Of a DNA stretch of 64,000 nt, positions 3,795 through 62,910 are shown one piece after another. The position numbers and the translations under genes were made by a program. Below the pieces are notes generated by a model. It was not told the DNA's origin and ran no database searches. It saw only the letters and a list, made by a program, of their open reading frames with translations. Each line of letters opens with the position of its first letter. The first letter of the stretch is position 1. The stretch is taken from assembly GCA_030847615.1 (NCBI GenBank), contig JAUMIR010000003.1, positions 341,138,256 through 341,202,255 on the forward strand, in the 5' to 3' direction. This stretch comes from Gambelia wislizenii. Taxonomy: Eukaryota; Chordata; Lepidosauria; Squamata; Crotaphytidae.

Positions 3795-4404
3795 AGCTTG
3801 TCTATACGAGAAGAAATAATGCACATACCTGCGCATTACAGGCAATTCTCAGTAGCATTCTTATGTCTCCACGGTGTTTGGGCAAAAATGATAGTCTGAG
3901 AAGCTCTCCTCTGAATGTTTACATGGCTGTGAATCAAGATGGTTGGGGTGGGGTGGGGGGCAAGAAAGGCAAAAGGGACCAGGAGGTGCAGCACCCAGAG
4001 TCAAGGAGGAGGGTGGCCACTGCAAGGAAGAGGAGAAGAGTTGCCCAACCTGGACCTATCCTGGCAGTGGTAGTAGTGGTGGCTTCCAATTCTGGCTGCA
4101 AAGGGATGGGAGGAGCCGCCTGGCCAGCTGCTGTGAGAAGGAAGTGGAGGGGGGTTCTTCATCACTTCATCTTGCCTTCTGCTAGACCAGTGAAGAACCC
4201 ATCCTCCTCTCCCTTCTCCTAGCAGCTTGCCAGGTGGCTTCTCCCATCCCTTTGCAGCCGGAATCAGAGGCCGCCGCCACTGAGGTAAGTGAAGGCTGGA
4301 CAGCTCCTTCACAGTATGTCAAATTGCCACAGGAGCCCATTGGGACAAAAGGTATTCTTCTTGCATTCTATGAGGAGCTTTTTCACCATCTAGACACCCC
4401 GCTA
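3795..4404. other. GC-rich sequence, partly a dispersed repeat
   Basis: Bases 3797-3935 (TTGTCTATACGAG to GAATCAAGATGG) resemble the start of the inverted-repeat element at 6495, and may be a decayed copy. Bases 3940-4300 are purine-rich and give overlapping frames of 80-119 codons on both strands. They have no family resemblance and the composition alone explains them. Confidence 0.4.
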
Positions 4405-7394: not shown

Positions 7395-7859
7395 TTAATA
7401 AGTGTATGTCCAGGGATAACAATTCTAAAATGCATATAGAATCCAGAACAAAGCATGTAAAACAGCTTATTTGTGTTAAGTGTGAATGTGGTTGGATGGA
7501 TGAGGTGTCATTATACTACAATAAAGCAGTACCTCTTACTAGAGATCTGTTGCTCACAATCTGTGGATCATGCTGAAAACATATTACAGTACTGTATTAC
7601 TATTATATTTTGGAATTCATGCTTTTCAGCAGAATGATGGAAAATGCTCCACCTTGTGGTGGATATCTTTTATAATGCCAGTTCCCTCATTATTGCTTCT
7701 TTTTCAAGCCAATTCTTTTCCTCGAAGCTATTTAGCTTGTAATGTTACTTTTAAAAAACAACTCATTCCCATTACTTATTATAATGTAGCTCCCCACCCT
7801 TGCTCACTTCACTGTTCTAAAAGTAACTTGTGTTGTCCATTGCTTTTTTGAAACACTCA

Positions 7860-8200
7860 AAAAGTTTCAAAAAGCACAGAAACACACTTTAAAATTTCCA
7901 AGTAAACCAGGGAGGGTCATAAAAAGTGTTTCACCTACCTGGATGTCATGTTTTCACCTGGAAGTGTTCTCGCCAGACCAGCCACTGACGCTCCATTCAT
8001 GTGAGTACAGTAGTGCAAAGTTTCAAATGCCAGCAATGCCAGCACAAAAGCAACAGGGGGATCAATTGACAGCTTGAGCCATCAATAAAAAAAGTATGTT
8101 TTTTTAACTGGACATGATTGCGAAAGGGCAACATCGTCCGGTACATGCTCGATCATTAGGTTTCCTTACGGCGTCTTATTTGCCTTGTCTGATAAAGTCC
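7860..8200 (-). mobile_element. GGACTTTATCAGAC-type MITE, left-truncated (copy K1)
   Basis: The right end reads GTCTGATAAAGTCC. Inside are the conserved core landmarks CACCTGGAAGTGTTCTCGCC, ACTGACGCTCC and the hairpin ATTGACAGCTTGAGCCATCAAT. The opposite terminal repeat is missing and the left limit is approximate. The right end abuts TTAAGC at the start of another copy's remnant, so this copy seems to have inserted into an older relative. Confidence 0.7.
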
Positions 8201-8417
8201 TTAAGCATGCTTGTGTCTTCTTGGGAGAACTGTCAAAGTCTTACCCATGCAAAAGCGCGGAAGTAAACAGTGACAGCAGTCACGTTGCCAAAATTCTGGG
8301 GTGGCTCTTTCTTGTGATTACAGCAGCATGTAATAAGAAGTGTTATTATGCCAGGATACTTACACTTTAAAATATAGTGGGACAAAAACATTTTTAGAAG
8401 CTCATCTGATAATCTCC
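8201..8417 (+). mobile_element. Right-end remnant of a 600-bp MITE
   Basis: TTAAGCATGCTTGTGTC, GGAAGTAAACAGTGAC, AATATAGTGGGACAAAAAC and the end CTCATCTGATAATCTCC follow the same order as the right third of the element at 55241-55844. Orientation is opposite to its left neighbour. Its own left part was not found upstream. Confidence 0.7.
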
Positions 8418-8865: not shown

Positions 8866-9475
8866 GGAGATTATCAGATGTGTTAAAACTGGCATTACAG
8901 CATCACCAGTGGATCGCAAAGGGGCTCCCTTACCAGACGATATCATTCCCCCCTTGTTACGCACCCGTTCTGCTGCCACTCCACCGACGCTAATTTTTAT
9001 TGACAGGAGAAGCTGTCAATAGATTCCACATTCTGCTCCTGTCTCAAATGTTCCTGCGTGCGACAAAATGCCCGTTTCGCTGGCGAGATCCCAGCATCAA
9101 TGGGCGGTCCCTGCCAGAATACTTCCGGGTGAGATTGGGACATCCAGGTAAGCTACCCTCTTTTTTGTACCCTCCCTGGGTTACTTGTAAATTTCTTAGT
9201 GTGTGTATGTGCTTTTCAAAACGTTTTGGTGTGTATTTGTGTTTTTACATTTGAATTTCCCATGCCTCACATCTTCTCACAAGAATCTGCAGGATTTTGA
9301 TCCAAGAAGTGAAGTGAGCTCCATTAGAGCTCCTTTCACTCCAGGGCTGCCCTGTCAATGGGAGAGGAGGTAAGTGCAGTAGGAAGGGCGATTGTAGTGT
9401 GACAGGGATGGGACAGGGGCAGGAGTTGAGATTGTGGGACAGGGACGCTTTTTGTGTTCCTGTCTGATAATCTCC
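8866..9475 (+). mobile_element. 610-bp MITE, GGAGATTATCAGA ends (copy A)
   Basis: The ends GGAGATTATCAGATGTG and CTGTCTGATAATCTCC are inverted. The internal landmarks are the hairpin ATTGACAGGAGAAGCTGTCAAT (8998-9019), ACTTCCGGGTGAGATTGGG, a splice-donor-like CAGGTAAG at 9146-9153, and a second, GAGGTAAGTG, near 9366. Flanking trinucleotides do not match (TGA and AGG), so the duplication is lost or altered. No coding frame. Confidence 0.85.
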
Positions 9476-16833: not shown

Positions 16834-17678
16834 CTTACAGAAGATACATTCAATCAGTGTTAGGAATGAGTCCCATTGATTTAATGGGTCTTTTCTATGT
16901 CTGAACAAGTCTGGATCTAATTCATTGTTACTTATGCCCATTTTCATATCTGATGGGCTCTAAATCTAAATAACACCAGAGATTGTGACCAGGGTGTTTT
17001 TGCAACACCAACACACACATAGAAGTCAAGAATGCTTCATTATTCAGTGTGTTTCCCCACTTCTTTTTATTGAGTTGCTTCCATTTTTGATTAACCTGTA
17101 GGTTGTGTAAACAGATCAGAGACCGAAGTGAGTTAAGGGAGCTATTATCTCAGAATAATGAACCATGTAAATAGGTGCTTGGGTGTTGAATCAAAACATA
17201 GATTTTATCCATTTTCTGCCACTTGTAGCCAACAGAAACACCACTGCCCAATTAATATGGATGCATCCAATTTGCTTGCATGCGAGATGATTAATCATCT
17301 GCTGGAGCGACACAGGACAGCTTGCATCCATTTGTTTTTTTCCTCTTTCTGATGACACACAACTGATTCTGGGGGATGGAAAGGAGGAAATCTCTTGATA
17401 TCACTGAACTGCAAGCTAACTGAATATCTTATGAGGAGAGGATCACCCCCTGATGATCAAGCAGTCAGAAACATAAATTGGCTGGCATCCTGTTAGTGAC
17501 CAAAGCATGCATAAGTGCAGCTTAGGTGTGCATACCTCCCTTTTTGGACAGGGTTCAGAGAGCTATTCTCTTGTCTTTTACTCCATTCAAAACCTTCCTG
17601 CACCCAGTAGCTGTCATGACCCAGTAAGGACTGCTGCTGCTGCTTCTCCTTTTTACCTGGATGGGGGGCAATTCAGAC
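16834..17678. other. Unassigned sequence
   Basis: No repeat family or exon recognised. Confidence 0.5.
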
Positions 17679-17681
17679 ATA

Positions 17682-18012
17682 GGAGATTTTCAGACAGGCA
17701 AAAATCGCCCCTTGCCGCGCGAGCAGCCTCCCGAAACTGCTGCGCGGCAAGGGTCTTTTTCGGACGACGCTGTGCCTCTAGCGAAGCCGTCCGTGTCACT
17801 TCCGTGAAGCTTGGGACGGCTCCGCGTCATATTTCAATCACGGGCAGCCTCCGTGCTTGAAATATGGCGCGGAGCCGTCCCAAGCTTCACGGAAGTGACA
17901 CGGACGGCTTCGCTAGAGGCACAGCGTCGTCCGAAAAAGACCCTTGCCGCGCAGCAGTTTCGGGAGGCTGCTCGCGCGGCAAGGGGCGATTTTTGCCTGT
18001 CTGAAAATCTCC
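17682..18012. mobile_element. 331-bp palindromic MITE (copy 1)
   Basis: Two 162-bp arms (17682-17843 and 17851-18012) surround a 7-base loop, GCAGCCT. The arms differ at only two positions (17827/17867 and 17837/17857). Ends are GGAGATTTTCAGACAGGC and its complement, with ATA on both sides (17679-17681, 18013-18015). I count 36 CpG sites, far above the surroundings. Each arm contains its own stem, CCTTGCCGCGC with GCGCGGCAAGG. There is no coding content; movement would need a transposase supplied elsewhere. A second copy of the same length lies at 46772. Confidence 0.93.
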
Positions 18013-18112
18013 ATAAATATCTGGGTGCGTCAAACTGTAAATCCCAGACTCCTTAGTATGGCGCTATGGGAGTTAAAGTGGTATTAAAGCGCTATAAATC
18101 TGTAGTGTTCTT

Positions 18113-21284: not shown

Positions 21285-21885
21285 GGAGATTATCAGACGG
21301 AGACCAAAAAAGTGTCTCCTTCTTACTAAACTATATTCCACCCCCCTCCCATCCACGTCCCAGCACGATAACTCCCCGTTTCACACTTACCTTGTTCACA
21401 CTACCGCCCCCTCCCCTTGGCAGCCAAGTGAATGGAGCTTGAGCAGAGCCCCATTCACTTACTGTTTTGAGTTCCTGGCCATTCTCACAAGAGAACAAGC
21501 ATGCTAGAAATAAAAAAAAATAAAATAAAAAGGGAAATAAAGATTGAAAGGTGACAGCAATAAATTTTTTTTTTAAAATACAAGTAACTGGGGGAAGGGG
21601 GGAAGGGTGTCACTTACCTGGATGTCCTGATTGCACCTGGAAGTGTTTGGTACAGACCTCCCACTGCAGCTGGCATTGCGCCAGCATAATGGGGCAGCTT
21701 TTGGCTCACCTGTGATTCCGTTACAGAAATGGAACAGGTGATCTATTGACGGCTTAAGCCATCGATAAAAAGGAACATGGACAGAACGGAAGCAGCACAA
21801 GACGAGGACGTCATCTGAAAAGTTAGACCTTTGGCGATCCCCTGGCATTCCTAGACCACCATATTAAGGGCATCTGATAATCTCC
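21285..21885 (-). mobile_element. 601-bp MITE with TTT duplication (copy G)
   Basis: The ends are GGAGATTATCAGACGG and GCATCTGATAATCTCC, with TTT on both sides (21282-21284, 21886-21888). The reverse strand has the donor-like CAGGTAAGTGACAC near 21617 and a second AAGGTAAGTGTGAAAC near 21380-21395. The internal hairpin reads TATTGACGGCTTAAGCCATCGATA (21744 onward). No coding frame. Confidence 0.9.
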
Positions 21886-25802: not shown

Positions 25803-26227
25803 ACTTTACCTCTTAAACCATGTGAATATCTATAGCCAAATTAGAGAAACTGGATCACATCCATCTTCAAGCGCCATCACACTCCTTCTTTGTGTTGAAA
25901 ATTAAACTCCCCAGGCTTATTGATAATCTTTGGCCATCCGGATATTTTGGACAACATGATCCCTCCCCTGATCCTTACCATTGGCCAAGCTGGATAATGT
26001 GTTGACCAAAACATGGAGAGGGATGTTCCTCATGTAATGGCAGGACACATATTTACATAGAGAAAGCTTCAGGTTCTGCTTTTAGAAACCCTGGTTAAAA
26101 GGATCAAGAGGCAAGTGGTATCAAAGACATCTGATGGAGACTTTAAAGGGCTGCTGTCAGTCAGAGTAGGGAATACTAGGTTAGATGGAAAAAAATAGTC
26201 TGGTTTAGGATTAATCAGCTTCTTATG
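25803..26227. other. Unassigned sequence
   Basis: Nothing recognised. Confidence 0.5.
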
Positions 26228-26435
26228 CTACCCTTAAGACACCAGATCCTGTCTGATCTTGGAAACTAAGTAGGGTCAGTTCTGATTAGTACTTGGATGG
26301 GAGACCACCAATGTATACCAGATATTGTAGGCTATATTTCAGAGGAATGAATAGACAAAACCACCTCTGAGTATTCCTTGCCTAAGAATACCCCATGTAA
26401 TGCATGGGATTGCCATAAATTGACAGATGAGTTGA
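26228..26435 (+). mobile_element. 5S rRNA-derived SINE
   Basis: GATCCTGTCTGATCTTGG, AAACTAAGTAGGGTCAG, then TTAGTACTTGGATGGGAGACC match the internal promoter region of 5S rRNA (SINE3 type). A non-5S tail follows (TATTCCTTGCCTAAGAATACC, GGGATTGCCATAAATTGAC). It is not a functional 5S gene because the 5' third is missing and the tail is foreign. Related antisense copies lie at 37062 and 41617. Confidence 0.85.
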
Positions 26436-28782: not shown

Positions 28783-29340
28783 GGAGATTATCAGATTCAC
28801 TAAAAATGGCATTATAACAATGCCAGGAGATCGCTAAAGCGCTCCCTTTTCAGATGACATTCTTCCCCACTCGTAATGCAGCCGTTCTGCTGCCGTTCCT
28901 ACAACACTGATTTTTATTGATGGGAGAAGCTGTCAATACATCCCCAATTCCATTCCTGTCATGGAGTTGGCAGTGACTGAAAAGGTGCCCTGTTTTAGTG
29001 CCGAGATCCCAGAACAATGGGAGATCCCTGCCAGAACACTTCCTGGTGAGATCGGGACATCCAGGTAAGTGACACACTTTTTAAAAACTTCCCTGGTTTA
29101 CTTGGAAGTTTTAAAATGTGTTTCTGTGTCTGGTGTAACTTTTTCTCTTTTATTTTTCTTTTAAACTTTGAATTTTCCACACTTGGGTCCCCTCGCAAGA
29201 ACTGGTGGGATTTCACTCCTGGGCTGCCCTGTGGACACTACAAAGGTAGGTCTGAAAAGTTTGGTTATTGTGGTGGGTCAGGGGCAGGAGAGCAGATTGT
29301 GGGACAGGAACACTTTTTTCGTTCCTGTCTGATAATCTCC
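28783..29340 (+). mobile_element. 558-bp MITE (copy B)
   Basis: The ends are GGAGATTATCAGATTC and CTGTCTGATAATCTCC. The hairpin ATTGATGGGAGAAGCTGTCAAT is at 28916. A consensus splice donor CAGGTAAGTGACAC lies near 29062. The flanks (TTG, TAA) show no duplication. It is about 50 bp shorter than the other copies because of internal deletions. Confidence 0.85.
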
Positions 29341-29437: not shown

Positions 29438-29767
29438 GTCGATTTTCAAATGGGGGAAATAACCCCCGCGGAGGTCGGGAGAGAAATGGGGCTGTTCTGC
29501 TTCCAGCGCTCCATTTCACACATCCCATCCTTCTCCCGATCTCCATTTGTTCTCCCTCCATCCTGCTTTCATTTTCCTTCCACTATTTTTGACTAACAGA
29601 AGTTTCCATTAGTAAAAAATAGCAGAAGGAAAATGAAAGCAGGATGGAGGGAGAACAAATGGAGGTTGGGAGAAGGATGGGGTGTGTGAAACAGAATGTT
29701 GGAAGCAGAACAACCCCGTTTCTCTCCCGACCTCCATGGGGGTTCTTTCCCCCATCTGAAAATTTCC
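29438..29767. mobile_element. 330-bp foldback MITE, older relative of the 331-bp palindromes
   Basis: The left end is GTCGATTTTCAAATGGGGG and the right end is CCCCCATCTGAAAATTTCC, both decayed forms of GGAGATTTTCAGATGGGGG. Arms pair through GAGGTCGGGAGAGAAA and GTTCTCCCTCCATCCTGC to a centre near 29600. Flanks are TAA and TAT, consistent with a degraded 3-bp duplication. Length and architecture equal those of 17682-18012, but the arm sequence is different and more diverged. Confidence 0.85.
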
Positions 29768-29769
29768 TA

Positions 29770-30090
29770 TGTCTCAGGTATTGATTCTCTTCACTTTCTC
29801 TAGTACTGAAACTCAGGGTCACATTGGTGTCCTTTCTAGACTAGTTTAGCAACTTATTACAGGAAGTAATAAAATCACCACATTTTACCAGAGGCACAAC
29901 AGGACAACTGTCAAGTTTATAACTTGCCCTGCTGCATTTGTGGCAGGGGCTCTCTTCCTAGTTTCATTGTTGTAAAACAAACATTTGGAATGAAAGATAT
30001 TTCCTACCTATAGGATGATAAATGATATTGCAAACTTGGGAGGATGAAGTCTGCTAATGGCAGTTGGGCAGACTTGGTATTTGAAGGGCT
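29770..30090. other. Unassigned sequence
   Basis: Nothing recognised. Confidence 0.5.
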
Positions 30091-30094
30091 ATCT

Positions 30095-30240
30095 CTGAGC
30101 AGTATTAAAGGATTTGGGACCAGAGCCTGGAAGTAACTTGTTATAAATAACTAGTTCCTTGCAAACAATTCTGTCAATTATCTTTGAGAATTCCTGGAGA
30201 ACAGGAGAGGTCCCAGCAGACTCGAAGAGGGCAAATGTTG
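30095..30240 (+). mobile_element. CR1 reverse transcriptase fragment
   Basis: The plus strand encodes FENSWRTGEVPADSKRANVV, PIFKN, the N-terminal reverse transcriptase motif of CR1 (WxTGEVPxDWKxANVVPIFKKG). The fragment then merges into MITE sequence. Confidence 0.75.
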
Positions 30241-30244
30241 TCCC

Positions 30245-30675
30245 CATCTTTAAAAATTTTGTCCCATGGCTTCTCATGATAAGACGCTTGCACAGGAAAT
30301 TAAAAAACAAACAAAATAAACACAGGAAAAGTTTTAAAAAGCACATACACACACTTTAAAACTTATAAGTAAACCAGGGAGCATGATAAAAAGTGCATCA
30401 CTTACCTGGATGTTGTGATCTCACCCAGAAGTGTTCTGGCCAGACCAGCCATTGACGCTGCATTCACATGAGTTAAATGGTGCAAGGTTTCAAACGCCAG
30501 CAATGCCAGCACTAAAGCGCTACAGCTGATCTATTGACGTCTTAAGCCATCAATAAAATACTACAGGTTTTTTACTTTACATAAATGCGAAAGGGCGACA
30601 TTGTCTGATAGGTGCACCCTTTCGCGTTAATGTGGCGTTGTTTTGATGCCATATTTAGCACGTCTGATAACTTCC
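30245..30675 (-). mobile_element. MITE with internal deletions (copy K2)
   Basis: The right end GTCTGATAACTTCC is followed by TAA. Core landmarks: CACTTACCTGGATGTTGTG (donor motif on the reverse strand), CATTGACGCTGCATTC and the hairpin TATTGACGTCTTAAGCCATCAATA. The left end is decayed (AAAAATTTTGTCCCATGG near 30250). Confidence 0.7.
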
Positions 30676-32491: not shown

Positions 32492-33102
32492 GGAGATTTT
32501 CACATGGGGCCAAAATGCCCCTTTTACTGCCCTGCCACCTCCTCTCCCGTTCCTGCCATGGAATAATGTAACTCTTTCACACACTTACCTTAATTCTGTG
32601 GCAGGAATGGGCTCCCCCTCCCCTCGCTGGCCGACTGTAAATGCAGCCATCGTAAGGCTGCTTTTATGACCAGCCGACTGAAACGGTATCACATTATCGC
32701 GTGATAACGGCCAGACGGTAAATTTAAAAAATAAAACTTCCCCAAGCATAAAATCAGTTCACCAAACACAAAAACACACTTTAAATCACACAATCAAAAC
32801 AGGGAGGGTAAAATAAAGGGTGCCACTTACCTGGATGTCCAGATCGTACCAGGAAGTGCTCGGAACGGACCTCCCCTCTACGGCTGTCATTTCGGAACAG
32901 GAATGGGGCTCCTGTTCGCACACCTGTGATTGCGTGATAGCGATAGAACGGGAGGTCTATTCACGATGAAAAATCGTGATCACATTGTTCCGGAACAGTC
33001 ACGGGAGCAGGATGGATGCAGGACAGAACGGGGTTAACATCGTCCAAAAGGGAAAACCTTTCCCGACCCTGCTCCTGATATATAGCCCATGTGAAAATCT
33101 CC
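32492..33102 (-). mobile_element. 611-bp MITE with TTA duplication (copy H)
   Basis: The ends are GGAGATTTTCACATGGGGC and GCCCATGTGAAAATCTCC, with TTA outside both (32489-32491, 33103-33105) inside a SINE. The reverse strand has CAGGTAAGTGGCACC near 32833. The hairpin TATTCACGATGAAAAATCGTGAT is at about 32958. The TIR interior GGGGCCAAAATGCCCC links it to copy I. Many CpG sites remain, so it is probably young. Confidence 0.9.
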
Positions 33103-38040: not shown

Positions 38041-38659
38041 AGAGATTATCAGACACTCTGAATATAGCGTTACAGGAACTCCAGGAGATTGCCAAAGGGC
38101 TTCCCTTTCAGACGTCGTCATCCTTGTCCTGTTATGCTCCTGTGCTGGCCCCGTTTTGCCCTCATTTCTTCTTATTCATGGCTTAAGCTGTGAATAGATT
38201 GCCTTTTCCATTCCTATCACAGAATGACAGACAAGCAAAAAGGTGCCCTGTTCCTGTAGTGCAATGCCAGCTGCAGTGGGAGGTCCATTCCAGAACATTT
38301 CTGGGTGTGGTTCAGGACATCCAGGTAAATGACACCCTTTTCTGTACCCTCCCTGGGTTATTTTGTATTTTTTAAGTGTGTTTTTGTGCTTGCTGTCACT
38401 TTTGGATGTATTTTTGGCTTTTATTATTTGAATTTCCCGCGTGTTCATCCTCTCACGAGAACAGCCTGGGATTTCAACTAGGAAGTGAATGGCACTCCGT
38501 GTGAGCTGCATTCACTCCATGGCTGCCAAGGGGAGTGGACAGACATGTGATTAAGGTAAGTGCAAAACAGTTTGTTACTGTGCTGGGATGGGGTCGGGGG
38601 TAGCGGGAGAGGAGATAGCAAGACAGGGATGCTATTTTTGTCCCTATCCAATAATCTCC
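38041..38659 (+). mobile_element. 619-bp MITE with ATA duplication (copy C)
   Basis: The left end AGAGATTATCAGACAC has one change from GGAGATT, and the right end is ATCCAATAATCTCC. ATA lies on both sides (38038-38040, 38660-38662). The hairpin ATTCATGGCTTAAGCTGTGAAT is at about 38173. A donor-like CAGGTAAATGACAC lies near 38321, with a second, AAGGTAAGTGCAAAAC, near 38552. Confidence 0.9.
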
Positions 38660-42957: not shown

Positions 42958-43573
42958 AGACATTATCAGATGGGGCCAAAATGCCCCATTACTTCCCCAC
43001 CACCTCCTATCCTGTTCCTGCAATGGAATGGAGGTAAATGTTCACACACTTACCTCCATTCCGCTCCAGGAAAGGGCTCCCTTCTTCCTTTGCCGGCCAG
43101 CTGTAAATGCAGCCGTCGTAAGGCTGCCTTTATGACTGGCCAGCTGAAATCCTGCTCATTCTTGCGAGAGAATAAGTGGGAGGGAAATTAAAAATACCCC
43201 CCAACTGTCAAATCGAAAAATAAAAGGCAATTTTTTTAAAAAAAGCAACCTGGGGAGGGGGGGAGAAGGGTGCCACTTACCTTGATGTCCAGATCATGGC
43301 AGGAAGTGATTGCCACGGACCTCCTCCCCTGTGCCTGTCATCGCGGAACTGGGACTGGGATCCATTTCCCACGTCCCTGATTCCATGACAGACACAGAAG
43401 AAAACGGAAAAGGGTTCTATTCACAATGTTTCATCGTGAATAGAATACCCTGGGAGCAGAACGGGGGCAGGAAGGGAACATCACAGAGGGGCTTGACATC
43501 ATCCGAAAGGGAGCCCCTTTCTCGCCTCTGTTCTGTTCTTGTCCCGGGGTATTTGCCCCATCTGATAATCTCC
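42958..43573 (-). mobile_element. 616-bp MITE (copy I)
   Basis: The left end is altered (AGACATTATCAGATGGGGCC); the right end GGGGTATTTGCCCC, ATCTGATAATCTCC is intact. Flanks TAC and TCT show no duplication. The reverse strand carries AAGGTAAGTGGCACC near 43273. The hairpin TATTCACAATGTTTCATCGTGAATA is at about 43420. It belongs to the same subfamily as copy H. Confidence 0.85.
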
Positions 43574-45912: not shown

Positions 45913-46473
45913 GGACTTTATCAGACCAACATACAAAAACATTTCTGTCCCACCAAAAGCTAACTGTGTACTTGTCCCAGCAACATAACCCTTTCTTTCA
46001 AACCCAACTTCAATAGTGTCAATGAGCACTCCCAGCATTAATGGAGCTCTGTTCACTTCTGCACTTGTGATCTCGGCAATTCCCATGCAAAGGCATGAGT
46101 GTGGTAAAATTAAAAAATACAGCAAAGCAAAGACAGAAAACGCACACACAAACACAGAAACATACTTTAAAACTTAAAAGTGAACCGGGGAGGTTCATAA
46201 AAAGAGTGTCCTCTACCTGGATTTCACATTCTCACCCGGAAGTGTTCTGGCAGGACTGCCCATTGACGCTGTATTTATGAGACAAAAATGGCATGCAGTT
46301 TCAAATTGCAATACCAGCAAAAAAGCACCGCGGGAGATCTATTGACAGCTTGGCCTGTCAATAAAACGGCTTATTTTCAGGACATTATCACAAAAGAACA
46401 ACATGTAGTATAGGCACCTTTTTGTATTCTTTTGGTGTCAATATGATGCCATTTTTTCCACTGCTGATAAAGT
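45913..46473 (-). mobile_element. 561-bp MITE, GGACTTTATCAGAC ends (copy K3)
   Basis: The left end is GGACTTTATCAGACC and the right end is CTGCTGATAAAGTCC; flanks GTA and ATA are a near-match duplication. Core landmarks are CACCCGGAAGTGTTCTGGC, CATTGACGCTGTATT and the hairpin TATTGACAGCTTGGCCTGTCAATA. The donor site has decayed (CTCTACCTGGATTTC). Confidence 0.85.
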
Positions 46474-46771
46474 CCATAGTTCTGTTTCACCACAACTGCT
46501 AAGACAAACCTGACAGGAATCTATGTTGTGTTTTTTTACCCAAACAAAGATACTTATTGGGAGGGGAATCTGTAAGGGGAATCTTCCATTTGTACTCAAA
46601 AATGGTTTCAAAGAGAATGAGACCATAGGCCTCTGGCCTGGTATTTTATCAAAATGTGAGGAAGACTCTCCCACCAAAGTACAAAGAATTGCAGAAAAGA
46701 AAGAAGCATTTAAGAACAGAAAAAGAGGCAAGTGGGGGAGAGAAAATATTCTGCTGAAAAACTCAGACAGA

Positions 46772-47102
46772 GGAGATTTTCAGACAGGCAAAAATCGCTC
46801 CTTGCCGCGCGAGCAGCCTCCCGAAACTGCTGCGCGGCAAGGGTCTTCTTCGGACGACGCTGTGCCTCTGGCGAAACCGTCCGTGTCACTTCCGTGAAGC
46901 TTGGGACGGCTCCGCGTCATATTTCAAGCACGGAGGCTGCCCGTGCTTGAAATATGACGCGGAGCCATCCCAAGCTTCACGGAAGTGACACGGACGGTTT
47001 CGCCAGAGGCACAGCGTCGTCCGAAGAAGACCCTTGCCGCGCAGCAGTTTCGGGAGGCTGCTCGCGCGGCAAGGAGCGATTTTTGCCTGTCTGAAAATCT
47101 CC
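46772..47102. mobile_element. 331-bp palindromic MITE (copy 2)
   Basis: Arms 46772-46933 and 46941-47102 flank the loop AGGCTGC, the reverse complement of copy 1's loop, so it lies in the opposite orientation. Only one arm mismatch exists (46967, a CpG to CpA change). AGA lies on both sides (46769-46771, 47103-47105). I count 35 CpG sites. It differs from copy 1 at four positions per arm, all mirrored in both arms. Confidence 0.93.
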
Positions 47103-47105
47103 AGA

Positions 47106-47813: not shown

Positions 47814-48944
47814 GGAAATTATCAGACTAGTGTGTTAAAACACTGTAATTCTGCAAGTGAGGAAAGCAGAAACACTGTGGCATTATTGCACTTACTAATG
47901 CACATCGCTGTAATCACGTAAAAGAACCTCCACGGAATCATCACACAATGGCCACTAGCGCTGTAAGAACAGGACTTTACTTCTGCAATTTGACATGGGC
48001 AAGATTTCGGTGGTTCTCGCAAAAAGACTCGAGTGTGCTTAACACTCCAAAAACACCTTAAGCAACAAGTACAGTAGCACCCCTGTATCCGTTGGGGGAG
48101 TGGTTCTGGGGGGACCCGTAGATGGGAAATTCCATGGATAATAGCGAAGGCCATCCCAGGGGCCATCTAGTCTCCCCCCTTCCCCTCCGCCAAAGCCCTG
48201 CCGCGGCAACAGGAGCTGTCCCGAGCGAAGGAGGGCGAGTTCGATCCTCCCCTCCCTTCACCCCCACCATGGCCCCACTACAGTGGCAATCGCAGGGGCG
48301 AAGGAGGGTAGGGAGGAGACTAGATCACTCCCCCTTCCCCCCCAGACATGGCCATGCTGCAGCAGTGATCGTGGTGGTATAGGGGGTGGGGAGGAGGCTA
48401 GATTGCTCCTCCCCCTCTTCCCCCTTCATCCCCCTCGATTGCTGCAGTGGTGATCAGGAGCCCTCCCAGGGGAAGGGATAGGGGAGGTGAGATTCCTCCT
48501 TCCCCCTCCCTTCCCCCTGCCATCACCAACTGCAGATAATTGAATCCGCAGTTGGTGAATCAGTAGATGCACAGGTACTACTGTAAATGAACATACGAGC
48601 ACAGAAACAAACCTAAAAATGTTAGAACTAAATGGGACATTTCATAAAAAGAGCATCCTTTACTTCATTTTCACATTCTCACCCAGACATATTCTCACTG
48701 AAGACCGCCCATTCATGCTGTAATATTGCAATTACAATGGGATGTGGTTTCAGACACCATGAATACTGCAAAAAAAAGCGATATTGACGATTTATTTATG
48801 GCTTGTCCTGTCAATTAGCAGCAATGCTTTATTCGTGGCTAGGGCACGAAGTAACCAAGTGGAGACGACATCATGCGATAGTTGCACCCATTCATGCTAC
48901 CATGATGTCGTAATCCTGTGATTTTGCCATGTTCAATAAAGTCC
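47814..48944 (-). mobile_element. MITE with TAA duplication, split by a Tigger-like element (copy L)
   Basis: The left end is GGAAATTATCAGACTAG and the right end is GTTCAATAAAGTCC, with TAA on both sides (47811-47813, 48945-48947). Removing the TA-flanked insert leaves about 617 bp, the family length. The two termini are of different subtypes (GGAAATT and GGACTTT), which joins the subfamilies. The hairpin is altered by a longer loop near 48783. Confidence 0.85.
48072..48583. mobile_element. 512-bp Tigger-like MITE nested in copy L
   Basis: CAGTAGCACCCCTGTATCC and GCACAGGTACTACTG are inverted ends with TA outside (48070-48071, 48584-48585). The interior is very GC-rich, with repeats of CTAGATC..CTCCCCCTTCCCC type. 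No coding frame is credible. Confidence 0.8.
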
Positions 48945-51418: not shown

Positions 51419-52260
51419 AGAGATTATCAGATGCTGTAATTTTGGCATTATGCAAATGCCAGGAGATTGCTAAAGGGCTTACCTTTCAGATGACATTGTC
51501 CTCATCTCGTTATGCTCCTGTGCTACTTCCATTCCACGGGGGCTCTTTTTTGTTCACGGGCTAAGCCGTGAATAGATCCCCCATTCTGTTTCTATGACAG
51601 AATGATGAGTGAATGAAAAGATACCCCGTTATGCTGGCAATGCCAGCATCAGTGGGAGGTCTGTGCCAAACAATTGCAGGTGCGATGATAAGTGACACAC
51701 TTTTTTGTACCCTCCCCAGGTTACTTGCGGGTTTTTTTTGTTTTGTTTTTTACAGTTGTTCCTTCATATTCACTGAGGTTTGGTTCCAGGAACCCCACCC
51801 CCGTGGATACAAAAATTGTGAATACTCAAGTCCCAAGCAAAATGGTGTCCCTTATATAAGATGGCAAAATCAAGGTTTGCTTTTTAGATTATTATTTATT
51901 TAAGCATATTTTCAAGCCGTAAATACTTAAATCCGTGGATACCAAATCCATGGATACGGAGGGACAACTGCAGTGTGTTTTTGTGCTTGCTGTCACTTTT
52001 TGATGTTTAGTTTGCTTTTTATTTTTGAATTTCCCACGCACTCGTCCTCTTGCGAGAAGGACCTGGGATTTCAAACCAGGAAGGGAATGGGGACTCTGTT
52101 TGAGCTCCATTCACTCCTGGGCTGCCGAGGGGAGGGAAGCAAACACGATTGAAGTACGTGTAAAACTTTTTGTTTCCACGCTGGGACGGGAACAGGAGGG
52201 GGGGTGGGAGAGAAGATTGCGAGACGGGGACACTTTTTTTGTCCCCATCTGAAAATCTCC
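51419..52260 (+). mobile_element. MITE with nested Tigger-like element (copy D)
   Basis: The left end is AGAGATTATCAGATGC and the right end is CCCATCTGAAAATCTCC; flanks TAA and GAA differ by one base. Without the insert at 51753-51970 it is about 622 bp. The hairpin GTTCACGGGCTAAGCCGTGAAT is at about 51554. The main donor motif is lost here because the matching segment is altered. Confidence 0.85.
51753..51970. mobile_element. Tigger-like MITE nested in copy D
   Basis: CAGTTGTTCCTTCATATTC and TACGGAGGGACAACTG are the ends. TA precedes it and CA (a decayed TA) follows. The interior GTATACC/GGATACC-rich sequence matches 56474-56701. Confidence 0.75.
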
Positions 52261-54207: not shown

Positions 54208-54810
54208 GGAGATTATCAGATGTGTCAAAAATGGTGTTATAAAGATGCTATGAGATTGCAAAGGGGCTTCCTTATCAGAAGACATCATGCCCCAGCATTA
54301 TACACGTGGTCTGCTGCTGTTATGAGGGAGTTCTTTTTTATTGTCGGGGAGAAGTTGACAATTGATCTCCCATAGCATTTGTGTTCTGGATTTCTATGTG
54401 CAAGAAGATGTCCTGTTCTCTTGGTGTGATTCCAATGTCAATGGGTGGTCGCACCAGAACGCTTCCGGGTGCGAATGAGAAAACTAGGTACCATATGCTC
54501 TTTTTATGAAACTCCCCATCTTGCTTGCAAGTTTTTAAACATGTATCTGTGCTTTTCTGAACGTTTTCTTTTTTAATTTTGATGTTTCAGGGCTTTTTAG
54601 CACGCTCACATCTTCTCATAAGATGCACTCAAATCACATTCACAGAGAAACGTGTAAGTAAGCAGCACAAGCACTCATATTGCCAGATTCTTGGGGTGAT
54701 TCTGTATCCTTATCACGGCAGCGTGCAAAAACAAGTGTCACTGTGCCAGAACACGAACGCTGTAAAATATAGTGCCATAATCACATTTAGGCACTCATCT
54801 GATAATCTCC
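54208..54810 (+). mobile_element. 603-bp MITE with ATA duplication in a SINE (copy E)
   Basis: The ends are GGAGATTATCAGATGTG and CACTCATCTGATAATCTCC, with ATA at 54205-54207 and 54811-54813. The hairpin has a different stem, ATTGTCGGGGAGAAGTTGACAAT. The donor site is reduced (CTAGGTACC). The empty site is known from the surrounding SINE, so the 3-bp duplication is secure. Confidence 0.93.
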
Positions 54811-55240: not shown

Positions 55241-55844
55241 AGAGATTATCAGACTGGGCAAATATGGATGATAACAACAGGATACCCTGAAAGGGCTTCC
55301 CTATCACACGACATCATCCCCTTGTGTTCTCCAAGCAACCCACTGCCAAGGATAAGGCATTCTTTTTTATTAACAGGCCAAGCCATCAATTGATCGCCAA
55401 TGGTGGGTTATTGTTGTTTTGTGGTATTGCGAGCATCTGAAACTGTGTGCCATTATGCTCTTGTGAATACAGTGTCAATGGACAGTCCCCACCAGAACAC
55501 ATCTGGGTGAGAACGGGAAAACTAGGCACGGGAAGCTCTTTTTATGAACCTCTCCGTTTGGCTGGCAAATTGTAAAGTGTGTTTCAGTGCTTGCGTGTTT
55601 GTCATCTTTGTTAGTTTTGATGTGTTTTTTTTACTTTTAAGCACGCTCGTATCTTTTTGCGAGAACCGCAGAGATCATGCACCCCAGTGAATGTGGAAGT
55701 AAACAGCGCTGGTGATCATGCTCCGATAATGCTGGGACTGCACTTTTTACAGTGACATGTGATTTTTAAAAAGGGTTATTGTCCTGGGATGCTTTTAAAT
55801 ATAGTGGGACAAGAATATTTTTAGAGGCTCGTCTGTTAATCTCC
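55241..55844 (+). mobile_element. 604-bp MITE (copy F)
   Basis: The left end is AGAGATTATCAGACTGG and the right end is GGCTCGTCTGTTAATCTCC; flanks TTA and TCC do not match. The hairpin ATTAACAGGCCAAGCCATCAAT is at about 55370. It belongs with copy E (AGAACGGGAAAACTAGGCAC, ATATAGTGGGACAAGAAT). Confidence 0.85.
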
Positions 55845-58670: not shown

Positions 58671-59708
58671 GGTGCCAGTTAGACGCTAGTTATTGTTGTC
58701 GGGCATCCCGGGACTTTTTGATCCCATATTCATCCCTCGCTGTTTACACGATTTTTGTCTCTGAACTGGATATCACGGGAGATCCCAGGATCATTGTTTA
58801 CATGGCATCATGTCCTGTGCTATGTATCTTCTCCCACTATATAATATCCTGTGGGGGGGGGTTGTTTGTTTGTTTACATGTGTTTACGGTCCCGGGATTT
58901 TTTTTTTTTTAGCTGGCAGTCAAGGATGCGATTACTCGTTTTTTCACAACCTCACTGATGTACTTCCTTCAGAGTTTCCTGCCACAAGCGATGCTATTGG
59001 CTGGCACAAATGTTTGTTCAAGCTTCTGCATTGGGGATGAGAGGATGAATGAGCGATCCGTGCGACCAGACCCTTGCTGTCTCTTTAAAATTTAAATCCA
59101 CCATGGAAAGCAAGCTAACAAGGGGATGAATGAGCGATCTGTGCGACCATAACCTTGCTGTCTCTTTAAATTTTAAATCCACCATGGAAAGCAAGCTAAA
59201 AGAGCGATCCCTGCGACCAGACCCTTGCTGTCTCTTTAAAATTTAAACCCACCATGCAGGGGAGAAACAGGTTAAAGCTGAAGGGTTTGCAGTGTAAAAC
59301 AGGGTGACTTAGTGCACAGACATATATATACATAAACCTACATGCAGCAGGAAGGGAAGCCTTTGTTTTCAGCTGGTGAGGCTGAATCTATTGAATCTAT
59401 TGAACAGGTGACTGACCCCTCCTTCTCCTTCCCTGGTCTCTGACCTCTGATCATGCCCCTGGTCACCATTTCCGGTCATCACCTAGTACTGAGATATCTT
59501 GTCCCAGGCTGTTTACATTTCCAATTTTCCAAATCCTCCTGTGACTTTTTAAAAAATTGCTACAAACCGCGGGGTGGAAAGTCCTGCTAGTTGAGAGATA
59601 AAAGATGGCCCCCCTTCCGAAAATCTCGGGACTGTCATGATGTACATTTAAACAACCAGGGATCGACACAAATTCATCCCACTACATTTTCATCGTGTAA
59701 ACGGCACC
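58671..59708. mobile_element. 1.04-kb DNA transposon, GGTGCC ends, AAT duplication (copy 2)
   Basis: GGTGCCAGTTAGACGC on the left and CATCGTGTAAACGGCACC on the right are inverted. AAT lies outside both (58668-58670, 59709-59711). It shares its internal order with 13305-14362 (CATCCCTCGCTGTTTACACG, GCTATTGGCTGGC, CACCATTTCCGGTCATC). It has gained an internal tandem array and has no transposase frame. Confidence 0.85.
59044..59257. repeat. Tandem array inside the GGTGCC element, about three 70-81 bp units
   Basis: GAGCGATC starts at 59051, 59132 and 59202, each followed by GCGACCA and CTTGCTGTCTCTTTAAA. The copy at 13305-14362 lacks the array. Confidence 0.85.

Positions 59709-62264: not shown

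Positions 62265-62295
<31 letters not shown>
62000..62295 (+). mobile_element. Non-LTR retrotransposon 3' end with ATT tail
   Basis: GGCAGGCCTTTCCTAATTAG, TTTTAAATTTTGTAAGCCGC, AGGGGCGGGGTATAAATAAA and a (TTA)n tail match the LINE at 1862-2440. The tail runs directly into the next MITE. Confidence 0.75.
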
Positions 62296-62296
<1 letters not shown>

Positions 62297-62910
62297 CAGA
62301 CAGGCACAAATAAAGCGTCCCCATCTCACAATCTCCTCTCCTGCCCCACTCCTGTCCCTATAGCAATTAAAAAAAAATTTTCAGACCTACCTTGGTCGTG
62401 CTATAGAAACTGCTCCCGTCCCTCTGGCAGTCCATGAGTAAATGGAGCTCTCATGGAGCCCCATTCACTCCTGGAAAGGAAATCCCAGCCATTCTCATGA
62501 GAGAACGATCACACGGGAAATTCAAAAGTTAAAAGCAAAATAAACATCAAAAAGAAAAACCAAGCCCCAAAACACATTTTTGAAACCCCAAGTAGCCCAG
62601 GGAGGTTGGGGGAAAGTGTGTCACTTACCTTGATATCCTGATCTCAACCGGAAGTGTTCAGCATGGACCTCCCACTGTGGCTGGCATCACGCCAGCATAA
62701 CGGGGCACCTTTTCGCTCAACCATCATTCCGTTACAGAAACTGAACAATGGGTCAATTCACGGCCCAGTCTGTGAATAGAAAGGAGCATGAGGGGGACGG
62801 AAAGGGTACGGGAGCATAACGCCACAGGGACAACGACGTCTGAAAGGGAAGCCCTTTGTTGATTTCCTGTTTTCCCTGTGTTGGCAGATTAAGGTCATCT
62901 GATAATCTCC
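62288..62910 (-). mobile_element. MITE (copy J), left end merged with an ATT repeat
   Basis: The left end reads ATTATCAGACAGGCAC after the (TTA)n tail, so its first bases cannot be separated. The right end is GTCATCTGATAATCTCC. The reverse strand has AAGGTAAGTGACAC near 62628 and CAAGGTAGGTCTG near 62392. The hairpin AATTCACGGCCCAGTCTGTGAAT is at about 62754. Confidence 0.8.

What the first reader, a model, noticed from the sequence alone, without database searches (positions are those of the whole stretch)
17682..18012. Two 331-bp palindromes whose differences are mirrored in both arms
Copy 1 (17682-18012) and copy 2 (46772-47102) have identical length, 162-bp arms and a 7-base loop. Comparing equivalent positions, they differ at 17709/46799 (C/T), 17758/46848 (T/C), 17780/46870 (A/G) and 17786/46876 (G/A). 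At each site the partner base in the other arm has changed to match (17985/47075, 17936/47026, 17914/47004, 17908/46998). Only three unpaired differences exist in all. Independent mutation cannot give four of four mirrored changes. The arms must be copied from one another (hairpin-templated repair or arm gene conversion), or the palindrome must be rebuilt from one arm when the element moves. I know of no description of this for the family, but I could not search.
Basis: seen in the sequence. Interest (0 to 1): 0.87.

Follow-up and report, generated by a model that had tools for sequence, protein, structure and literature searches.

The report
Palindromic transposon with self-matched arms
Two copies of a 331-base, likely mobile DNA palindrome differ from each other at four sites where both halves carry matching changes, so one half has likely been copied from the other, predicted to happen by a hairpin-templated process already described for other inverted repeats.

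Summary
Both 331-bp palindromes are at the stated coordinates (162-bp arms, 7-nt loop). They differ at four mirrored pairs and three unpaired arm sites. One correction: the loops are exact reverse complements (GCAGCCT/AGGCTGC), so copy 2 is in the opposite orientation and the loop is otherwise unchanged. If 11 arm differences fell at random, four or more mirrored pairs have P = 1.6e-6.

Each copy has a 3-bp target duplication (ATA; AGA) and a terminal motif found 22 times in the window (0.31 expected). I read them as foldback MITEs, possibly PIF/Harbinger-like; no transposase was recognised.

Best reading: the arms were homogenised by hairpin-templated synthesis (template switching), most likely in source copies before these insertions. 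The three unpaired changes lie within 27 bp of the loop, as that model predicts, but numbers are small.

The principle is not new: inverted-repeat homogenisation with spacer inversion is published, and two of four GalileoN copies in one study show >99% arm identity within and ~7% divergence between copies. The genome-wide test could not be run; the own-genome search failed nine times. Assembly error is not excluded.

The parts
17682..18012 (.). Palindrome copy 1: arms 17682-17843 and 17851-18012
   Evidence: 160 of 162 arm pairs complementary; folds as one hairpin, DNA parameters -238.3 kcal/mol against a mean of -63.6 in 100 shuffles
17844..17850 (.). Loop of copy 1, GCAGCCT
   Evidence: exact reverse complement of the copy 2 loop
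17679..17681 (.). Left target-site duplication of copy 1, ATA
   Evidence: ATA also directly follows the right end
18013..18015 (.). Right target-site duplication of copy 1, ATA
46772..47102 (.). Palindrome copy 2: arms 46772-46933 and 46941-47102
   Evidence: 161 of 162 arm pairs complementary
46934..46940 (.). Loop of copy 2, AGGCTGC, inverted relative to copy 1
46769..46771 (.). Left target-site duplication of copy 2, AGA
47103..47105 (.). Right target-site duplication of copy 2, AGA
29438..29767 (.). Third, more diverged palindrome with related ends but different arm sequence; comparison case for arm decay
   Evidence: 23 of 165 arm pairs mismatched (3 of them in the first four bases, where the left boundary is uncertain), 19 of 23 transitions, no exact 3-bp duplication at these ends; arms aligned
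8866..9475 (+). Member of the ~610-bp non-palindromic element group that shares the terminal motif; no exact 3-bp duplication
32492..33102 (-). ~610-bp group member; both 17-bp ends identical, duplication TTA, pre-insertion site ACTTAGT
54208..54810 (+). ~610-bp group member, duplication ATA

Best explanation
The two 331-bp palindromes are likely copies of one foldback transposon without known genes (a palindromic MITE), and their mirrored differences were likely produced when one arm served as template for the other through a hairpin formed during DNA replication or repair (template switching, also called quasipalindrome correction). Shown: the palindromes, the four mirrored and three unpaired differences, the inverted loop, the 3-bp target duplications and the shared ends. 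Inferred: a mutation in one arm of a source element was copied into the other arm by strand switching near the loop, so it was passed on as a matched pair. Two source lineages that had each been matched then gave rise to the two insertions, in opposite orientations. The three unpaired changes are either post-insertion mutations or loop-proximal sites that a switch beginning beyond them did not reach.
For:: of 7 variable arm pairs, 4 group the two arms of one copy against the two arms of the other, 3 are singletons, and none groups an arm with an arm of the other copy; P(4 or more mirrored pairs by chance) = 1.6e-6; the loop is identical once copy 2 is reverse-complemented, so the palindrome junction most simply formed once and the arms were matched afterwards; counted to the first loop base, unpaired pairs lie 6, 17 and 27 bp away and mirrored pairs 58, 64, 86 and 135 bp away, the order expected if a switch starts near the loop and converts outward sites (rank test two-sided P = 0.057, weak); one strand of copy 1 folds into a single hairpin; 35 of 36 CpG sites are intact in both copies (element CpG observed/expected 1.20 and 1.18, window 0.25), and no mirrored site changes a CpG; this fits young insertions whose mirrored changes came earlier; the third palindrome has lost much of its arm matching, which fits matching before rather than after insertion. 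Precedents.
Against: Only two copies of this element were available. The unpaired changes show that matching is incomplete in these copies. The inverted loop is equally explained by insertion in opposite orientations and is not independent evidence of a template switch. The CpG argument fails if this CpG-rich element escapes methylation. Some published palindromic elements lose arm identity with time instead (Rickettsia elements, as reported in PMC6649704, passage). Two of the four GalileoN copies show the opposite pattern (arms ~6% apart within a copy), which its authors put down to recombination between copies. Reads were not available, so assembly or polishing error is not excluded. Template switching was not separated from recombination-based arm conversion or from mismatch repair of a hairpin.
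Confidence: 0.55

Rival explanations
1. Arm-to-arm gene conversion by recombination (double-strand break repair between the arms, or mismatch repair of an extruded cruciform), not polymerase template switching.
For: Gives the same mirrored pattern. Active maintenance of palindrome arms in human X and Y chromosomes and in Caenorhabditis is cited in PMC6649704 (passage). Homogenisation by unequal crossing over or gene conversion is suggested for repeats in the arms of two of three complete Tetris foldback elements (PMC4079207, passage).
Against: The arms are short (162 bp) and separated by 7 nt, a geometry that favours intra-strand hairpins over arm-to-arm strand exchange (inference). The loop-proximal unpaired sites fit outward copying slightly better (weak).
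Confidence: 0.2
2. The whole palindrome is rebuilt from one arm each time the element moves, as a step of transposition or of the gap repair that follows excision.
For: Both insertions look young with nearly perfect arms, and the palindrome at 29438-29767 has decayed. Template switching during transposition and gap repair is named as a source of altered Galileo copies in PMC4168063 (passage).
Against: Nothing in the data needs it. The same pattern follows if matching happens occasionally in source copies. The ends and target duplications look like ordinary cut-and-paste insertion.
Confidence: 0.08
3. Assembly artefact: the assembler or polisher forced the two arms of each copy to agree.
For: Near-perfect palindromes are hard to assemble (general knowledge), and no reads could be examined.
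Against: Three unpaired differences survive. The mirrored site at arm position 28 lies 27 bases from flanking sequence on both sides, so even short reads should anchor it (inference). The arms of the two copies were not merged with each other. Element boundaries coincide with 3-bp duplications, unlike what fold-back sequencing chimeras would give.
Confidence: 0.12
4. Compensatory selection on a hairpin RNA or on the palindrome itself, with a second mutation restoring pairing after the first.
For: All four mirrored changes are transitions, as expected if G-T/U wobble intermediates are tolerated.
Against: Transitions are common anyway. Four compensated pairs need many rounds of selection on an element with no known product. 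The window scans with Rfam list no family at either 331-bp palindrome, at gathering threshold (1 match in all) or at E up to 0.5 (34 matches in all).
Confidence: 0.05

Closest known systems
GalileoN foldback transposons of Drosophila buzzatii (PMC2775673, section 10 part 1; passages)
   Same: GalileoN-1 and -2 have arms >99% identical within a copy and ~7% divergent between copies; GalileoN-4 and -5 have middle segments in opposite orientation.
   Different: GalileoN-4 and -5 show the reverse arm pattern, explained there by ectopic recombination. [quoted passage not shown] here the element is 331 bp with a 7-nt loop and 3-bp duplications. The part I read does not explain the within-copy identity.
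Template switching between inverted-repeat arms (PMC8604942, passages and Introduction; PMC8794818, outline and abstract; PMC7954356, passages)
   Same: Arm homogenisation and spacer inversion; paired changes that keep a stem matched.
   Different: The yeast study concerns short inverted repeats in genes; here the arms are 162 bp in a repeat element.
Nematomorph mitochondrial palindromes (PMC6649704, passages)
   Same: Perfect palindromes up to 284 bp whose arms evolve in concert; a paired substitution between two individuals; template switching named as a possible mechanism.
   Different: Mitochondrial coding genes, not a transposable element.
Tetris foldback transposon of Drosophila virilis (PMC4079207, passages)
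   Same: Foldback structure, presumed non-autonomous; arm repeats of two of three complete copies group within the copy, read there as possible homogenisation.
   Different: Arms up to 1,735 bp with ~220-bp tandem repeats; no such tandem repeats here.
PIF/Harbinger-like MITEs (features recalled)
   Same: 3-bp duplications; a target preference that looks like AC-TNA-GT across the group; no protein family recognised; multicopy ends.
   Different: Only 1 of 6 exact duplications is the TTA recalled as typical; no transposase seen.

Membership tests
MITE (non-autonomous DNA transposon) | Short element with terminal inverted repeats flanked by a target-site duplication | tested here: met
   331 bp, identical 17-bp ends, exact 3-bp duplication in both palindromes. 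In the wider group exact duplications are seen in 6 of 13 elements (7 without), against 10 of 156 mismatched left/right pairings
MITE (non-autonomous DNA transposon) | Multicopy, ends shared with other elements | tested here: met
   22 ends (4 of them the two palindromes' own) against 0.31 expected. The 331-bp element itself has only two copies in the window; beyond them its arm matches only 31 bp of one other element's end
MITE (non-autonomous DNA transposon) | No coding capacity | tested here: inconclusive
   none of the 14 listed ORFs of 120 aa or more matches Pfam at E up to 0.01; one of them (46523-46897) runs into copy 2. Shorter ORFs were not searched
Foldback element | Inverted repeats make up most of the element and it folds on itself | tested here: met
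   arms are 324 of 331 bases; single hairpin (copy 1 with DNA parameters, both copies strongly stable with RNA parameters)
PIF/Harbinger superfamily | 3-bp TWA (TTA/TAA) duplication within a palindromic target (recalled) | tested here: inconclusive
   exact duplications ATA, AGA, ATA, ATA, TTT, TTA; pooled flanks of 12 elements favour AC(T/A)NA; e32492 matches 8 of 9 of a recalled PIF target, the other five match 5 or 6 of 9, which 11% and 3% of window 9-mers also reach. The recalled motif was in no paper of the library
PIF/Harbinger superfamily | Mobilised by a Harbinger transposase and its Myb-like partner (recalled) | tested here: inconclusive
   no Pfam match in 14 of 14 listed ORFs of 120 aa or more; an autonomous partner may lie elsewhere in the genome
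Template-switch (quasipalindrome) correction | Arms more alike within a copy than between copies through paired changes | tested here: met
   within 2 and 1, between 5-6; four paired sites; two copies only
Template-switch (quasipalindrome) correction | Spacer inversion | tested here: inconclusive
   spacer is inverted, but opposite insertion orientation explains it equally
Template-switch (quasipalindrome) correction | Uncorrected mismatches lie between loop and switch point (inferred prediction) | tested here: inconclusive
   complete separation of 3 against 4 sites, two-sided P = 0.057

The most novel reading that the evidence does not exclude
In this transposon family the palindrome is rebuilt from a single arm as a regular part of the element's life cycle, so mutations are inherited as mirrored pairs and the element evolves as half its length, with the loop flipping freely.
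Probability: 0.1. Interest if true: 0.72.

Novelty: new member of a known kind. Interest (0 to 1): 0.4.

Why it matters
If it holds genome-wide, the family would be a natural record of hairpin-templated arm correction in a multicopy element: every insertion is a replicate whose arms record mutation and correction separately. The rate, direction and position dependence of template switching could then be measured, and the question of how inverted repeats of transposons stay matched would be directly testable.

Tried and rejected
Looked for relatives in plasmid and phage records (no match) and for an exact 22-mer in viral and genome contig collections (none); these collections are of viruses, plasmids and prokaryotes and probably the wrong place for this genome. 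Rfam matches below the gathering score (33 of 34) fall mostly on 29438-29767 and 4072-4281 and are nearly all to many different microRNA precursor models; I take them as the effect of any long hairpin and did not follow them. Independent formation of two palindromes from two half-elements was rejected because the junction and loop are identical. A 9-mer, GCAGCCTCC, shared by loop and arm was seen by eye in the sequence and not pursued. Dropped row: the element at 62291-62910 is among the 13 but not among the 12, because its left boundary runs into an ATT microsatellite. The terminal motifs searched in papers gave 21 papers, 20 listed; judged by titles and abstract starts none concerns this element. 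No paper on arm matching in a Harbinger-like palindrome was noticed in the listings (20 of 70 listed); the library holds only open-licence papers, so this is not proof of absence. The host was not identified; that it is a vertebrate, perhaps a reptile, is my recall from the repeat types and low CpG, not a test.

Full report
Observation. Copy 1, 17682-18012, pairs 160 of 162 arm positions; copy 2, 46772-47102, pairs 161 of 162. Compared base by base, four arm positions (28, 77, 99, 105) and their mirror partners differ together, and three arm positions differ in one arm only. The seven loop bases also differ in direct comparison, because the copy 2 loop is the exact reverse complement of the copy 1 loop. 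In the matching orientation (copy 1 against the reverse complement of copy 2) there are 11 differences, all in the arms, and the loop is identical.

Chance. Treating the four arms as a quartet, 155 of 162 columns are constant, 4 separate copy 1 from copy 2, and 3 are singletons; no column groups an arm with an arm of the other copy. If 11 differences were placed at random on 324 arm positions, four or more mirrored pairs have P = 1.6e-6, and requiring the matching base lowers this further. All four mirrored changes are transitions.

What it is. Each copy is flanked by an exact 3-bp duplication, ATA and AGA. The terminal motif with up to 3 mismatches occurs 22 times in the window, 4 of them the palindromes' own ends, against 0.31 expected. 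A profile made from five ~610-bp elements with those ends matches 17 stretches of the window, including the five. By sequence the 331-bp arm itself matches, beyond the two copies, only the outer 31 bp of one such element. Of 13 elements examined, 6 have exact 3-bp duplications and 7 do not, against 10 of 156 mismatched pairings of left and right flanks. The flanks of 12 elements favour AC(T/A)NA just outside the end. The palindromes therefore look like members of a mobile group without known genes. The likely superfamily is PIF/Harbinger, but this rests on the 3-bp duplication and a recalled target motif, and only one duplication is TTA. No Pfam family was recognised in the 14 listed ORFs of 120 aa or more.

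Age. The two palindromes have CpG observed/expected of 1.20 and 1.18, against 0.25 for the window. Of 36 CpG sites, 35 are intact in both. If CpG sites mutate 5 or 10 times faster, four mirrored changes with none at a CpG have P of 0.03 or 0.005. This suggests young insertions and mirrored changes that did not arise as ordinary methylated-CpG decay after insertion. The argument fails if a CpG-rich element escapes methylation.

Comparison case. A third palindrome, 29438-29767, has related ends but different arms; 23 of 165 arm pairs are mismatched, 19 of 23 are transitions, and 3 of the 23 lie in the first four bases, where the left boundary is uncertain. Its arms have drifted apart, so matching is not kept up indefinitely after insertion. 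It has one clean 40-bp run (P = 0.02), which I do not interpret.

Mechanism. Inferred: a single-arm mutation in a source copy was copied into the other arm through a hairpin. One strand of copy 1 folds as a single hairpin at -238.3 kcal/mol, against a mean of -63.6 in 100 shuffles. In template switching the growing strand copies one arm, folds back near the loop, and copies itself, so outer sites are converted and sites next to the loop are not. Counted to the first loop base, the unpaired pairs are 6, 17 and 27 bp away and the mirrored pairs 58 to 135 bp away. The order is as predicted, but the two-sided P is only 0.057. The inverted loop also fits template switching, but opposite insertion orientation explains it equally.

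Known precedents. Template switching that homogenises inverted-repeat arms and inverts spacers is described in yeast genes (PMC8604942, passages and Introduction). Its role in keeping RNA stems matched is in PMC8794818 (outline and abstract), and conversion of near-perfect into perfect inverted repeats is discussed for great ape genomes in PMC7954356 (passages). Nematomorph mitochondrial palindromes evolve in concert, whereas the same paper reports that palindromic elements of Rickettsia lose arm identity with time (PMC6649704, passages). GalileoN copies 1 and 2 have >99% identical arms within a copy and ~7% divergence between copies; copies 4 and 5 have opposite middle segments and the reverse arm pattern, which the authors explain by ectopic recombination (PMC2775673, section 10 part 1). 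Possible homogenisation of arm repeats within two of three complete Tetris elements is noted in PMC4079207 (passage). Template switching in transposition and gap repair is named in PMC4168063 (passage). The principle is therefore not new; what is added here is one more, compact example in a different element.

Limits. Two copies only; no reads; no genome-wide set, because the own-genome search was unreachable in all nine attempts. Assembly error is disfavoured by the three surviving unpaired differences and by the mirrored site 27 bases from the flanks, but it is not excluded.

Noticed in passing
7850-8200, 8155-8417, 8866-9475, 21285-21885, 28783-29340, 30240-30675, 32492-33102, 38041-38659, 42958-43573, 45913-46475, 47859-48079, 48557-48942, 51419-52260, 54208-54810, 55241-55844, 62291-62910: A ~610-bp repeat group with ends like GGAGATTWTCAG: 17 matched stretches in 64 kb, some of them fragments, in both orientations (two stretches are joined here as 51419-52260).
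   Followed up: partly
32492-33102: Both 17-bp ends carry the same unusual variant (GGAGATTTTCAC), matched to each other though the interior is not palindromic.
   Followed up: no
26218-26333: A 5S rRNA-like sequence, the only Rfam match at gathering score; it may be the head of a 5S-derived SINE (recalled kind, not tested).
   Followed up: no
17672-17681, 46762-46771, 29768-29777: Both palindromes have similar left flanks (TTCAGACATA, CTCAGACAGA), and the right flank of the palindrome at 29438-29767, reverse-complemented, is CTGAGACATA; this resembles the element's own TCAGACAGG and may be a target preference.
   Followed up: partly
59043-59256: Tandem array of an 81-bp unit, 2.8 copies.
   Followed up: no
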